From: Neolewinella aurantiaca
GTDB taxonomy: Bacteria > Bacteroidota > Bacteroidia > Chitinophagales > Saprospiraceae
Assembly: GCF_008014675.1 (NCBI RefSeq)
Contig: NZ_VOXD01000008.1
Span: 1-64,000, forward strand
DNA length: 64,000 bases
Reading direction: 5' to 3'
Positions 1 to 10,446 of this stretch are shown one piece after another. Position 1 is the stretch's first letter. Each line of letters opens with the position of its first letter. Under the pieces are notes generated by a model. The model was given only the letters and a program-made list of their open reading frames with translations. It had not been told where the DNA came from and searched no databases. The position numbers and the translations under genes were made by a program.

Positions 1-110
1 TCCAAAAAGCCTTATCATGTGTATCTTATCAGGCGGTACACGACTGGGAAACCCAGTACGTCTGCGAAAATCGATACGGGTTGGTCCGCCGTATGAATCG
101 GGAGCTAAAA

Positions 111-995
111 TCAGCGGCGGCTTGAAGCTAACAGACGGAACACCCTAGTACTAGTAGTGCTCAATATTTTTTGTAGGGCAGTCCAATCGGAGGATCTATC
201 ATCAGTAGCCGTTCTACAAATTGTCACGCAGCCATGACTCGTGCCACCTATATGCAAACGAAATCCGTTTCTCGGTTTACCTTGATGATTAGTCACGCCG
301 GGCACATCATATTGATCATTTTGTGGGGTTCCATCTTGAGCGTCAATTCTGAACCAATCATCATGAGAAGGATTTGTATTTCCTCCATTTTCCAAAATGT
401 CAAATGTTCCGTTCGGGATTTCAACTTCGGCTAAGTTACGATTTGTCTCGAAATTTCCATCAGTCTGGTTTACTCCTCCTCCGGAAAATACATTTTCTAT
501 CACTAAAACTTGATTATGAGTTAGGTTGCCATTGGCATCTCTAGCACCACCATGAACATAATCGGCCGCTGAGACATATTTAGTCGACAAGTTCGGATCG
601 AAATGATCTAGGTCAACAACGCTAAGTGTAGCATTTGTCTTATTGTAGGAAATGATAACGTCTTCTGGCGCCATCCCATCCGGATCAACCAACCTAACCG
701 GATTCCCCAACACATAGTTATAAGAACTCCACCCTGGGAACTCCCCCGCCAACGCATCCACCCCCAAAAACCGCCCAATCTCAGAATCATACAACCGCGC
801 TCCCCGGTTATCGTACCCCGTATCCTTATCCCGCTCGTGGTGGGTGGAGAGGTAGCGGTTTTGGTTGCAGGCCTTGTATTCGCGCAGGATTTTACCGTAG
901 GGGTAATAGTCGGCGGCGTAGTCGATTTGGATGGCGCCCGCGCCGTCGGCGCGGAAGGTAAGGCCGGTGATGATGAAGGGGCGGAGCGGTTTCAC
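111..995 (-). CDS. RHS orphan tip 1, L,D-transpeptidase-like toxin domain
   Basis: Residues 1-85 are the RHS repeat-associated core end (YYPYGK, YDNRGARLYD, IGRFLGVD, then the NPVRLVDPDG junction) that is shared almost unchanged by all cassettes. After the DPDG junction the sequence is unique. Near residues 248-256 it has a histidine, then T-S-H-G-C, which is the catalytic pattern of YkuD/Tlde1-type L,D-transpeptidases that modify or cut peptidoglycan; this assignment is from the motif alone. The start is GTG at 995; upstream in frame there is no ATG before a stop. No downstream immunity gene is visible before the window edge; a minus-strand ATG at 18 could begin one. There is no full-length RHS N-terminus, so this may be a silent donor cassette or a small independent protein. 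Confidence 0.75.
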   Translation of the reverse strand: MKPLRPFIITGLTFRADGAGAIQIDYAADYYPYGKILREYKACNQNRYLSTHHERDKDTGYDNRGARLYDSEIGRFLGVDALAGEFPGWSSYNYVLGNPVRLVDPDGMAPEDVIISYNKTNATLSVVDLDHFDPNLSTKYVSAADYVHGGARDANGNLTHNQVLVIENVFSGGGVNQTDGNFETNRNLAEVEIPNGTFDILENGGNTNPSHDDWFRIDAQDGTPQNDQYDVPGVTNHQGKPRNGFRLHIGGTSHGCVTICRTATDDRSSDWTALQKILSTTSTRVFRLLASSRR

Positions 996-1247
996 AGGGC
1001 TACAAGATAAGGCGATTGGCGAGAACAGTCATTGGCCGGGGCATCTGGGCGCGGACGCAGGTTCCGACCCCGATCACCTTCGGGGTGCAAGGGGAAGATG
1101 GCTGAAAATAATATCCATTACCCAGAGGGAAGCCTATTAGCCCGCAAAGACAAGAAGCTTTCTCAGACTCAACTGGCAAAGCAACTCAGCACCTCCATTT
1201 TCGTCATCAGTCGCTACGAGCGTGGCGAGATGACACCGTCCATTGAC
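749..1247. repeat. Cassette homology block, copy 1
   Basis: Direct repeat running from the end of the RHS core, across the divergent spacer, into the first ~50 codons of the XRE gene. Further copies lie at 2662-3013, 4435-4788, 5983-6483, 7932-8341 and, truncated, at 9901-10070. Differences between copies are scattered single bases, so the block offers homology for recombination among cassettes or with a full RHS gene elsewhere. Confidence 0.85.
1067..1086. promoter_or_regulatory. Hairpin/inverted repeat in RHS-XRE divergent spacer
   Basis: ACCCCGA and TCGGGGT form a perfect 7-bp inverted repeat with a 6-nt loop, 11 bp before the XRE start codon. It is conserved in the five cassettes that keep the spacer. 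It could be an operator for the XRE protein or an RNA hairpin over the XRE ribosome-binding site (AAGGGGAAG). The function is inferred only from position and conservation. Confidence 0.45.
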
Positions 1248-1457
1248 AACGCTAAAAAACTAGCCGGTTTACTTGATACCACCGTAGGCTATCTACTCGG
1301 CGAGACCTCCGATCGCGATTTACTGAAAGACCCCGCCATGCTACGTCGACTTATCGCCATTAGTGAGCTGCCGGAAAAGGAGCGCGATCATGTTCTGTAT
1401 AACCTTGACGCTGTAATTCGGGACTACAAAACTAGGATGGCGTACGCTGCTGGCTAA
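1098..1457 (+). CDS. XRE-family transcriptional regulator (cassette 1)
   Basis: A 119-residue protein with an N-terminal helix-turn-helix of the Cro/XRE (HTH_3) type: KLSQTQLAKQL, then ISRYERGEMTPSID, residues about 15-70. A C-terminal helical part ends ERDHVLYNLDAVIRDYK and probably dimerises. ATG 1098 is chosen because it follows AAGGGGAAG and matches the starts of the other cassettes; a longer open frame from 1032 only runs back into the spacer repeat. The gene is divergent from RHS tip 1 and converges on the lipoprotein gene at 1480-1929 with a 22-bp gap. A role in repressing the adjacent cassette is inferred. Confidence 0.85.
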   Translation: MAENNIHYPEGSLLARKDKKLSQTQLAKQLSTSIFVISRYERGEMTPSIDNAKKLAGLLDTTVGYLLGETSDRDLLKDPAMLRRLIAISELPEKERDHVLYNLDAVIRDYKTRMAYAAG

Positions 1458-1479
1458 CGTAACTTTACCTTAGGTAGCA

Positions 1480-8656: not shown

Positions 8657-9154
8657 TCATTGACATTCACATTGTGCCGCTTTTTTAACCCTCTTTGTCA
8701 CATTGCTTGAAGAAAAGTAGTCAGTAGCATACTCCCATAAGAAATCTGTTTTATATTCTGCCCTCATTTTTGAAGGGAGATCGAATATTTTTATATGTAA
8801 GTATGCTTGCTGAAAAACATCTATTTTTGTTTTAAAGCTATACGGCTTGTTTCTTATAAAGCCATCCACCAACCTCCACGATTTAAAACTTATGAGAGCA
8901 TTAGAGTCTGGCGGCATTAGCATGATGCTTTCATACATACTTTCGCCCCCCACTACTTCTCCGATCCTATAAGCTACCTTGAGGGTATCGTATAAATGAG
9001 TAGAATCAGGTGATGGAAAAACTATTTCAAAGTCTGATATATTACTTTCAACACAACCATTTCTTTCTATAACAACGTTTAAGCGAGATTGAGCTGATGC
9101 GTCTACAGAAGATAGCAAGCACTCCAAAATTATAAAAACAAAAACACGTCTCAT
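8657..9154 (-). CDS. Exported protein, candidate immunity for tip 6
   Basis: A 165-residue protein with a signal peptide (VFVFIILECLLSSVDASAQ, cleavage near residue 22) and a mature part with no family I recognise; it ends KKAAQCECQ. It starts 21 bp after the stop of RHS tip 6 and is AT-rich like the other candidate immunity genes. Role inferred from position. Confidence 0.6.
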   Translation of the reverse strand: MRRVFVFIILECLLSSVDASAQSRLNVVIERNGCVESNISDFEIVFPSPDSTHLYDTLKVAYRIGEVVGGESMYESIMLMPPDSNALISFKSWRLVDGFIRNKPYSFKTKIDVFQQAYLHIKIFDLPSKMRAEYKTDFLWEYATDYFSSSNVTKRVKKAAQCECQ

Positions 9155-9175
9155 GTTAAATGATTTATCATGCGA

Positions 9176-10070
9176 TTAAAAACCAGCTTCTAGCTTTATT
9201 CTATTCTTTAGGATTTGCTGCATAGCAGACTTAGTAAGCGTTCCCTGAGGCTTTACTTCTCCTCTACCATAAAACGCTGCTCCCAGCTTAGGTTGTGATA
9301 TACCCGAAGAAGTCTTTGATGCATTTCCTAGCCTACCTACAATGATGTTTTGTAGGAAATTTGGAAACGCGTCTTGGTCGGCTTCGCCAGCAGGCTTTTG
9401 CCCCGTAAGTGATGGTTTTAAAGCGCTGTAACTTCTTACTCCACCTCCAGGATCTTCAGTTGCGTTCAAACCATGAGAATGTATGCTGACTCCATTAACA
9501 CCACTTCTTCCAGGAACAGTCGCACTTTCTTGAGCCCCACGTTCTCCAGTGCTTATTACTCCTCCTTCAACTAATGAAGCTTCTTCATAATCTCCACCGT
9601 TGTTTTCTGTTCGATATAAGACTTGTGCCGCAGCTCGAATATTCGTAGCTGTCGTTTTGATTTTGGCACCGCTAATTAATTGCTCAGTAGTGACATCTCC
9701 ATTTGCAAGTTTTTGCTGAATTTTGCTTGCGGAACCATCTACAACAGCAACATGATCAGGTGTTGAATCATCAACTCTAGCAATCAGGACTCCATCTTTA
9801 TCAACAATATCAGTATCAACACTTCGCCCGTCAGGATCAGTATTAGATATCGGATTCCCTAAAACGTAATTATAAGGGGAAAACGGCGCGTACATACCCG
9901 CCAACGCATCCACACCCAAAAACCGCCCGATCTCAGAATCATAAAGTCGAGCTCCCCGGTTATCGTACCCCGTGTCCTTATCCCGCTCGTGGTGGGTGGA
10001 GAGGTAGCGGTTTTGGTTGCAGGCCTTGTATTCGCGGAGGATTTTCCCGTAGGGGTAGTAGTCGGCGGCG
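9176..10070 (-). CDS. RHS orphan tip 6, 5'-truncated, possible JAB-like toxin domain
   Basis: In frame from about 10,070 down, the RHS core (YYPYGKILREY to IGRFLGVD) and a NPISNTDPDG junction are intact. The first ~25 codons of the other cassettes, including the GTG start, are replaced by unrelated sequence that opens at a stop (10,127-10,129) and has no ATG/GTG/TTG before the TTG at 9919. The gene is thus probably untranslatable as a full core, or starts weakly at 9919. The tip contains SIHSHG with upstream acidic residues and a later S/D region, suggestive of a JAB/JAMM-type metal site; this is tentative. Confidence 0.6.
9901..10070. repeat. Cassette homology block, copy 6 (truncated)
   Basis: Only the RHS-core part is present. 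Similarity stops at about 10,070 and the spacer, hairpin and XRE start are absent, so this is the outer end of the array. Confidence 0.8.
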
Positions 10071-10122
10071 GCGGAAGCGTTCTTCCGTAAGCGGAAGGTA
10101 GGCTTTTCCGGAGGAAATACAA

Positions 10123-10446
10123 ATGGTTAAAGCTTCAGGACGTGTGTATCCGCGCATTAAATTTCAATGAGGTTACCCCACAATGTTTGTCCGGTTTGAG
10201 CGCAAGTTGATTTTAAATTACTGAGGCGAGTTGATGAGCGCGCAAACCAGATTGTCGCTCACCCCCCTCCCTGCCTCCCCACATCGCTACGTTGGGGAGG
10301 AGTAATCGCGACAATCTGATTTGCGCCCGTTGATGTACCTGCATTAATCTCCCCCTCCAACTGCCAGATTTAGTTGACACCTATTGAACAAGTTCAAGTA
10401 TTTACCGGAATTTCCGTCTGACCTTTACCCTTGAACACAGCAAACA
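10123..10446. other. Intergenic boundary region between RHS array and next gene
   Basis: No convincing gene. A 15-codon frame (ATG 10,123 to TGA 10,170) has a good GGAGG ribosome-binding site but no recognisable product; it may be the cut-off start of a lost gene. A palindromic element occupies 10,240-10,326. Confidence 0.5.
10240..10326. repeat. Nested palindromic element
   Basis: Outer arms of 19 bp (10,240-10,258 and 10,308-10,326, one mismatch, GCGCAAACCAGATTGTCGC type) enclose a second inverted repeat CCTCCCCA/TGGGGAGG (10,274-10,281 and 10,293-10,300). It could fold into a cruciform or long RNA hairpin; no coding capacity. Confidence 0.6.

What the first reader, a model, noticed from the sequence alone, without database searches (positions are those of the whole stretch)
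1..10126. Six-cassette array of orphan RHS tips without a full-length RHS gene
Six minus-strand cassettes share an ~85-codon RHS core end but carry unrelated C-terminal domains, each with a different small gene after it. No long RHS N-terminus exists in the window on either side. Orphan tips in known systems recombine with one expressed RHS gene to change the toxin; an array of six with a regulator per cassette is larger and more ordered than usual.
Basis: partly seen in the sequence, partly recalled or inferred. Interest (0 to 1): 0.8.

Follow-up and report, generated by a model that had tools for sequence, protein, structure and literature searches.

The report
Relics of toxin-tip-swapping mobile elements
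The row of six headless toxin genes looks like the worn-down remains of a family of small mobile DNA elements that insert into the middle of bacterial RHS weapon genes, fit them with a new toxin tip and its antidote, and push the old tip aside.

Summary
The six RHS-tip cassettes are real, but the window begins at contig base 1, inside an insertion sequence that breaks cassette 1. No full-length RHS with this core was found in the 6.0 Mb Neolewinella assembly, so a switching reservoir is not supported. The 'regulator per cassette' is a decayed repressor gene at 3 of 5 junctions. Its family has 7 hits in the genome; 6 lie 3' of, and convergent with, orphan RHS tips. In relatives it belongs to a 7.3-8.2 kb element: RHS core end+tip, immunity, convergent HTH, DnaG-like primase, two tyrosine recombinases. 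Among 73 primase loci, HTH occurs in 64 of 66 testable, both recombinases in 46 of 46, an RHS core 5' in 44 of 55. Elements sit inside rhs genes. In three loci attL, tandem junction and attR share 6-10 bp within conserved core codons, followed by a displaced tip. This fits the integrase-driven circular intermediate that Jackson et al. (2009) lacked. The window is best read as a graveyard of such insertions. Ten literature searches listed no description. Nothing was tested at the bench.

The parts
1..147 (.). end of an insertion sequence (3 contig ends carry it) at the contig start; interrupts cassette 1
   Evidence: 1-147 match the end of contig C75 (99%), 1-157 that of C8 (98%); other IS end on C27, C65, C69; of these only C27 shares the 10-bp target duplication
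111..995 (-). cassette 1: RHS core end (675-995) + L,D-transpeptidase-like tip (Tlde1 2.8e-4, below cut-off), broken by the IS; the ORF's last residues are IS-derived
   Evidence: tip 55% identical over 175 aa to the tip of an element in a relative (L164/L229)
1140..1457 (+). HTH (RstR/HTH_3-type) relic of the element repressor, 5' end replaced by junction sequence
1480..1929 (-). putative immunity gene 2
   Evidence: directly 3' of tip 2; no Pfam hit
1931..2908 (-). cassette 2: core (2588-2908) + metzincin-like metalloprotease tip (Peptidase_M10 3.6e-7)
3087..3620 (-). putative immunity gene 3 (weak MORN-repeat resemblance, 0.064)
3624..4682 (-). cassette 3: core (4362-4682) + tip without Pfam match
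4964..5266 (-). putative immunity gene 4 (100 aa)
5268..6230 (-). cassette 4: core (5910-6230) + tip without Pfam match
6376..6747 (+). HTH relic, longest open copy; 6441-6703 is 76% identical in DNA to the HTH region of an element contig of an uncultured Lewinella (L192, which ends inside the primase gene)
6720..7241 (-). putative immunity gene 5 (DUF3592-like, 3.3e-5, just below cut-off)
7231..8178 (-). cassette 5: core (7852-8178) + tip (only a weak sub-threshold DUF2505 match)
8324..8640 (+). degenerate HTH relic (two in-frame stops and a frame change); 8366-8643 is 77% identical in DNA to the HTH gene of relic C34
8657..9154 (-). putative immunity gene 6
9176..10126 (-). cassette 6 (5'-most): core homology starts at AADYYPYG (about 10075) + tip
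   Evidence: tip resembles the tip of element L194 (30% identity, 1.5e-8)
996..1092 (-). 97-98 bp non-RHS junction block shared by cassettes 1-5 just upstream of the core frame (also 2909-3005, 4683-4780, 6231-6328, 8179-8276)

Best explanation
The array is the decayed product of repeated insertions by a family of small integrative elements of Bacteroidota. The intact element (7.3-8.2 kb) carries the 3' end of an RHS core fused to a toxin tip, its immunity gene, a convergent HTH repressor, a DnaG-like primase/ATPase and two tyrosine recombinases. Its recombinases (inferred) join it to a short site within conserved codons of an rhs gene's core. The host gene stays in frame but ends in the element's tip, and the old core end, tip and immunity gene are pushed 3' as an orphan. 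Repeats of this, followed by loss of recombinases, primase and part or all of the HTH gene, leave rows of core-tip-immunity units with HTH scraps between them. Shown: gene order, position inside rhs genes, direct repeats at element borders, displaced tips, related tips and HTH genes, truncated intermediates. Inferred: recombinase action, circular form, transfer, immunity function, and that the window passed through this path. After decay, the near-identical core-plus-junction blocks probably let homologous recombination reshuffle the array.
For: Own genome: the HTH family has 7 hits, 6 of them 3' of and convergent with orphan RHS tips (C83 x3, C34, C1, C13). C34 and C13 also keep the start of a primase gene beyond the HTH. 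Relatives: 29 of 30 primase copies in 27 family loci have the convergent HTH within 750 bp; the 30th has 53 bp of sequence there; an RHS core lies 5' in 20 of 30. Of 73 loci from the genome collection: HTH 64/66, both recombinases 46/46, RHS core 5' 44/55, another RHS core 3' 27/46. Of these 27, three are tandem copies of the same element, 21 are not (two of them, L199 and L260, share a short identical contig-end stretch), three could not be tested. RHS frame over 1000 aa in 17 of 26 loci with at least 5 kb upstream. Borders with all three joints: TACGAG (Aureispira plasmid), GTGTTGATCC (G087), TATGGATT (Aureibacter plasmid), each in conserved core codons and followed by a displaced core. Of 31 downstream core starts, 24 fall at DHLGN, DYYPFG, RYGYNGKE or GRFLSVDPLA by profile, 7 elsewhere. 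Own-genome orphans start at the same motifs. Closed plasmids show tandem elements. Adjoining elements with 98% identical backbones have different tips. Two Chitinophaga chassis 82% identical carry unrelated tips. Cassette-1 tip and its C27 neighbour gene match an element.
Against: No primase or recombinase remnant was found in the window, and in the assembly only 29-36% identical XerC/D-like matches to the first recombinase. Twelve of 16 multi-core loci in relatives show no HTH relic by my profile, so arrays may also grow otherwise. Two of five window junctions lack HTH. Cassettes 1-5 share one junction scar, which one-by-one insertion does not explain without later homologous recombination. 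Cassettes 1-5 start, by profile, near DYYPFG (position 79) and by eye a few codons 3' of DHLGN, not exactly on an attachment motif. Seven of 31 downstream cores start away from the four motifs by profile. Eleven of 55 primase loci show no RHS core upstream. Weaker primase matches (25 further plasmid records, 26-27% identity in those listed) were not examined. Excision, circles and transfer are unproven.
Confidence: 0.78

Rival explanations
1. Classical C-terminal displacement by homologous recombination alone (Jackson et al. 2009): circles carrying core+tip recombine with identical core DNA, and the HTH gene is a passenger.
For: Cores in the window are 92-100% identical in five of six copies, ideal for homologous recombination; 12 of 16 multi-core loci in relatives show no HTH relic; 7 of 31 downstream cores start away from the four motifs.
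Against: Borders of three tandem insertions share only 6-10 bp, with a primase and two recombinases inside; 24 of 31 downstream cores start at four short motifs.
Confidence: 0.13
2. Silent reservoir: the six tips are exchanged onto one expressed RHS gene.
For: Orphan tips with retained core, five of six not interrupted by the IS and with open reading frames.
Against: No full-length RHS with this core in the assembly; the only full-length RHS has a 33% identical core and no HTH or primase hit in the 19 kb around it; cassette 1 is broken by an IS.
Confidence: 0.04
3. Each HTH is a functional cassette-specific regulator of tip/immunity expression.
For: Two of three HTH frames are open in the window; position is constant, convergent with the neighbouring small gene.
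Against: In elements of relatives the HTH is divergent from the primase gene, as expected of an element repressor; one of three copies has two in-frame stops and a frame change; two junctions have none; the N-terminal residues are replaced by junction sequence.
Confidence: 0.05

Closest known systems
Rhs C-terminal displacement and dissociated tip arrays (Jackson et al. 2009, PMC2935791; passages seen)
   Same: Core fragment + variable tip units pushed 3' of an rhs gene; a circular intermediate was postulated.
   Different: [quoted passage not shown] here two tyrosine recombinases, a primase and a repressor travel with the tip and the joints are short.
Orphan cdiA-CT/cdiI and rhs modules (Poole et al. 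2011, PMC3150448; passages seen)
   Same: Arrays of toxin-tip/immunity modules, up to eleven, sometimes IS-broken.
   Different: Mechanism of exchange stated as unknown; the word integrase does not occur in its main text.
Vibrio cholerae T6SS immunity arrays (PMC5361080; abstract and outline seen)
   Same: Serial displacement of effector-immunity modules leaves arrays.
   Different: A section heading reads 'Homologous recombination without specific integration sites'; here specific sites in core codons.
SitA toxins on prophage-like Mx-alpha units in Myxococcus (PMC5562445; passages seen)
   Same: Polymorphic toxins carried on tandem mobile elements.
   Different: Whole operons on ~100 kb units, not a tip delivered into the coding core of a resident gene.
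Small integrative elements with tyrosine recombinases; integrons (general knowledge, recalled)
   Same: Tyrosine recombinases, repressor, replication gene, att direct repeats.
   Different: Target is the coding core of a toxin gene and the restored 3' end is a new tip; no structural or conjugation gene noticed among the ORFs listed (not searched for systematically).

Membership tests
RHS proteins (TIGR03696 core) | RHS-associated core domain over curated cut-off | tested here: met
   6 of 6 cassettes, 58.6-63.1 bits against 32.5
RHS proteins (TIGR03696 core) | long N-terminal RHS-repeat shell in the same gene | tested here: not met
   open frames of 305-363 aa only; a matching full-length gene was not found in the assembly
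Orphan Rhs tip arrays (C-terminal displacement) | core fragment + variable tip + cognate immunity gene in series | tested here: met
   six units; cognate status supported by homology for cassette 1 only, immunity function not tested
Orphan Rhs tip arrays (C-terminal displacement) | array lies 3' of an intact rhs gene of the same clade | tested here: not met
   5' of cassette 6 lies an HbpS-like gene; no matching full-length rhs
RHS-core-targeting integrative element (described here) | tip-immunity-convergent HTH gene order | tested here: met
   3 of 5 window junctions; HTH at 64 of 66 primase loci of relatives
RHS-core-targeting integrative element (described here) | primase and two tyrosine recombinases | tested here: not met
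   not found in the window; primase starts at C34 (near a contig end) and C13 only; so the window holds relics, not an element
RHS-core-targeting integrative element (described here) | direct repeats at both borders inside a host rhs gene | tested here: inconclusive
   met in relatives; not testable at the window's scarred junctions
Integron | integron integrase over cut-off | tested here: not met
   TIGR02249 best 110 bits against 265
Phage or phage satellite | presence in phage/viral collections | tested here: not met
   Viral contigs: 31 pattern matches, none a relative of the primase; phages: no match at E 1e-20

The most novel reading that the evidence does not exclude
A widespread family of warhead-swapping integrative elements in Bacteroidota uses a few conserved codon motifs of the RHS core (DHLGN, DYYPFG, RYGFNGKE, SVDPLA) as attachment sites and is a main engine of RHS toxin diversification there. 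It is the integrase-borne circular intermediate missing from the 2009 displacement model. Some members may do the same to non-RHS polymorphic toxin genes.
Probability: 0.75. Interest if true: 0.9.

Novelty: new variant of a known kind. Interest (0 to 1): 0.84.

Why it matters
How RHS and other polymorphic toxins change tips has been explained by homologous recombination with an unproven circular intermediate of unknown origin (PMC2935791, passages). Elements that carry tip, immunity, repressor, primase and recombinases, and that integrate in frame at conserved codons of the toxin core, give that step a concrete and testable mechanism. They would explain why tips and immunity genes move together, why many orphan cores begin at a few motifs, and how tips cross species. 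They also make sites of tip exchange predictable, and show mobile DNA supplying a host's weapon as its own means of retention.

Tried and rejected
Looking for the full-length partner of the array: protein, family and DNA searches of the own assembly found none. The left neighbour was pursued through the IS: three contigs carry one IS end and three the other, and only C27 shares the 10-bp duplication with C83; the first 12 kb of C27 hold the small gene and then other genes, and no RHS core was found on C27. A cassette-specific regulator role for the HTH was dropped. A viral origin was dropped. Window sequence against the Neolewinella agarilytica element contig gave no DNA match, so the shared junction block could not be proven to be an element end. 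Exact border assignment failed for L250; three of 18 loci gave no alignment. For C. barathri only two of the three joints were seen. No structure was predicted.

Limits of the counts: profiles for HTH, primase, core and recombinases were built from own-genome and early relatives' sequences; at least L227 and L229 among the 73 supplied recombinase training sequences, and L190, L202 and L237 are genomes already seen under G handles. The 73 loci come from the best 80 of 375 relatives; the rest were not examined. The 199 family genomes are a sample. The 20 loci were picked for having several cores, a close core or a full-length RHS; 16 of them, from 11 genomes, hold two or more cores. Literature listings were capped (for example: 20 of 13,984 shown; 20 of 30; 15 of 24).
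Full report
Observation. The window is contig C83, base 1 onward, of a 5,995,659-base, 104-contig assembly. Genome G116, classed as same genus, has a 6140-base contig that matches Neolewinella agarilytica record NZ_FOFB01000048, so the genus is taken to be Neolewinella. Six minus-strand RHS core ends lie at 675-995, 2588-2908, 4362-4682, 5910-6230, 7852-8178 and 9827-10075. Core plus upstream DNA is 95-100% identical over 346 nt in five copies and 94% over 171 nt in the sixth. Direct repeats end at the core end, and the tips differ. Cassette 2 has a metzincin-like tip (Peptidase_M10 3.6e-7) and cassette 1 a sub-threshold Tlde1/L,D-transpeptidase match (2.8e-4); the others have no convincing Pfam match.

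Left edge. Bases 1 to about 147 are the end of an insertion sequence shared with the ends of contigs C8 and C75. The opposite IS end lies on C27, C65 and C69, and of these only C27 shares a 10-bp target duplication with C83. The small gene at C27:254-673 is homologous (26% identity, 9.5e-14) to the gene that follows the tip on an element of a relative, and that tip is 55% identical to cassette 1's. Thus the array ends there, in an IS-broken tip followed by its likely antidote. No RHS core was found on C27.

No partner. Genome-wide, RHS cores are found on C83 (six), C1, C34, C13 and C12. Only C12 is full length (2205-aa frame), with a core 33% identical to the query. The tip-switching-reservoir reading therefore lacks its recipient, at least in this assembly.

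The lead. The HTH gene at three junctions belongs to a family with seven hits in the genome. Six sit 3' of, and convergent with, an orphan RHS tip and its neighbour gene: C83 three times, C34, C1 and C13. Random placement would give this with a probability of about 2e-12, though the three window copies are not independent. At C34 (close to a contig end) and C13 the start of a DnaG-type CHC2 primase gene lies beyond the HTH gene.

The intact element. Searching the primase in 199 family genomes gave 18 with a match. Around them the order is constant where enough sequence is present: RHS core end + tip, small gene, HTH (opposite strand), primase/ATPase (one gene or two), two tyrosine recombinases. 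Pfam PF00589 gives 6.9e-30 and 4.2e-35 for the first recombinase of two elements, and 1.4e-4 (below cut-off) and 2.7e-20 for the second; CHC2 and Toprim domains mark the primase. The convergent HTH is present at 29 of 30 primase copies; the 30th has 53 bp of sequence there; an RHS core lies 5' of 20 of 30. A scan of the species-genome collection gave 375 primase relatives; the best 73 loci were examined. By record title one is a Bacillota MAG, one a Chlorobiota MAG, one an unnamed bacterium, and the rest I read as Bacteroidota. In these 73: HTH 64 of 66 with at least 700 bp upstream, both recombinases 46 of 46 with at least 2300 bp downstream, RHS core upstream 44 of 55 with at least 1800 bp, another RHS core after the recombinases 27 of 46. 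Of those 27, three (L209, L233, L234) are tandem copies of the same element, 21 are not, and three had too little upstream sequence to tell; two of the 21 (L199, L260) share a short identical stretch at a contig end and may be repeats too. With at least 5 kb upstream, 17 of 26 loci have a core in an open frame over 1000 aa, so insertion commonly leaves the host frame open into the new tip.

Attachment sites. Tandem copies give exact borders. In the Aureispira plasmid (period 7652) attL, junction and attR share TACGAG in the codons before SNHLGN, and the sequence beyond attR runs on as a displaced core, tip and small gene, then a second orphan. In G087 (period 7618) the repeat is GTGTTGATCC (VDP), and beyond attR the frame reads VDPLAIFAPSWTS..., a displaced core and tip. 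In the Aureibacter plasmid (period 8169) it is TATGGATT in RYGFNGKE, again followed by a different core. In Chitinophaga barathri attL and junction both begin at ATTATTATCC (HYYP), and element ends in three other Chitinophaga loci (L230, L234, L253) join the same kind of site. In Cytophagales locus L196 and Brumimicrobium L209 attL and junction part at VDPL and YRYGF codons. In 31 downstream cores compared with an extended core profile, the first matched position falls in 79-86 (DYYPFG) ten times, 102-104 (RYGYNGKE) six times, 130-138 (GRFLSVDPLA) seven times and at DHLGN once; seven start elsewhere (15, 49, 50, 74, 76, 92, 118). For two of these seven, L215 and L253, the DNA alignment begins at DYYPFG. 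The orphans of the window's own genome start near the same motifs: C34 at DHLGN, cassette 6 at DYYPYG, C1 at RFNGKE, C13 at FLGVDPLA. Cassettes 1-5 start a few codons after the place of DHLGN, behind a shared 97-98 bp block. Tandem copies are present in two closed plasmids, so they are not assembly artefacts; a Belliella contig of 7668 bp has 299-bp identical ends, as expected of a circle or tandem.

Tip swapping. In G127 contig C1 two adjoining elements have backbones 98% identical over 3.2 kb but different tips and small genes. Two Chitinophaga rhs chassis (L230, L233) 82% identical over 441 aa carry unrelated tips at the element. Related tips occur across species: cassette 1 with an element of an uncultured Saprospiraceae, cassette 6 (30% identity) with one of Chryseotalea, the C1 orphan with orphan tips behind the elements of two Chitinophaga genomes. 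The window HTH at 6441-6703 is 76% identical in DNA to the HTH region of an element contig of an uncultured Lewinella, which ends inside the primase gene.

From element to array. A decay series is visible: intact; primase cut short (C34, C13, G142, G077, G109); HTH only (window, C1, N. agarilytica, G098); nothing left (two window junctions and most arrays of relatives). By my HTH profile 4 of 16 multi-core loci fetched from relatives keep an HTH, so the link is clear for some arrays and untestable for others. The five window junctions share one scar, so after the first decay the array must have been extended or homogenised by homologous recombination in the core-plus-junction block. That step is inference.

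Literature. Ten searches of the held library, several with capped listings, listed no paper whose title or abstract start describes RHS-inserting elements; subscription papers and preprint servers are mostly outside the library. Jackson et al. [quoted passage not shown] Poole et al. 2011 (passages) called the exchange mechanisms unknown. Zhang et al. 2012 (passages; held text is cut) describe tip-immunity cassettes, and the recombinases in the passages seen stand beside polyimmunity loci. An Ornithobacterium paper (passages) counts 26 orphan tips in the accessory genome and a tip shared with Bergeyella.

Verdict. The finding as stated is a known kind, a row of orphan RHS tips, wrongly read as a reservoir with regulators. 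What lies behind it is, as far as I could search, an undescribed family of integrative elements that target the RHS core and replace the toxin tip. I rate this a new variant because tyrosine-recombinase elements and tip displacement are each known; the combination is what is new.

Noticed in passing
L160 (G170:C10), L251, L252: Elements of the same gene order next to large ORFs without an RHS core by my profile (2120 aa with an AHH nuclease match; Flagellimonas frames with a shared motif on both sides of the element): possible non-RHS polymorphic-toxin hosts.
   Followed up: partly
L159 5183-5715, 13332-13864; L170 about 4860-5490: Some elements carry a ParE-like toxin with a small partner gene (Pfam ParE 1.8e-14 for L159); similar genes by eye after the recombinases in N. 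agarilytica.
   Followed up: no
window 10242-10330: An ~87-bp dispersed repeat just 5' of the array, about 90% identical to copies at L073 2277-2360 and 4996-5081, upstream of the C34 orphan.
   Followed up: no
C8, C75, C65, C69 contig ends: The other two copies of the IS at the window edge show no matching target duplication between the available contig ends.
   Followed up: no
L159 16341-17618: The primase gene of the second tandem element is interrupted by a 426-aa ORF that recurs at L179 1549-2826, probably a transposase.
   Followed up: no
window 10447-12679 +: HbpS-like haem-degrading protein gene and a Dabb/lactonase-propeller protein gene beside the array; ordinary genes.
   Followed up: no
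L199: Belliella filtrata contig of 7668 bp consisting of one element with 299-bp identical ends: circular form or tandem.
   Followed up: partly
plasmids collection: 25 further plasmid records (Leptospira and others) hold distant primase matches covering under 80% of the query; context not looked at.
   Followed up: no
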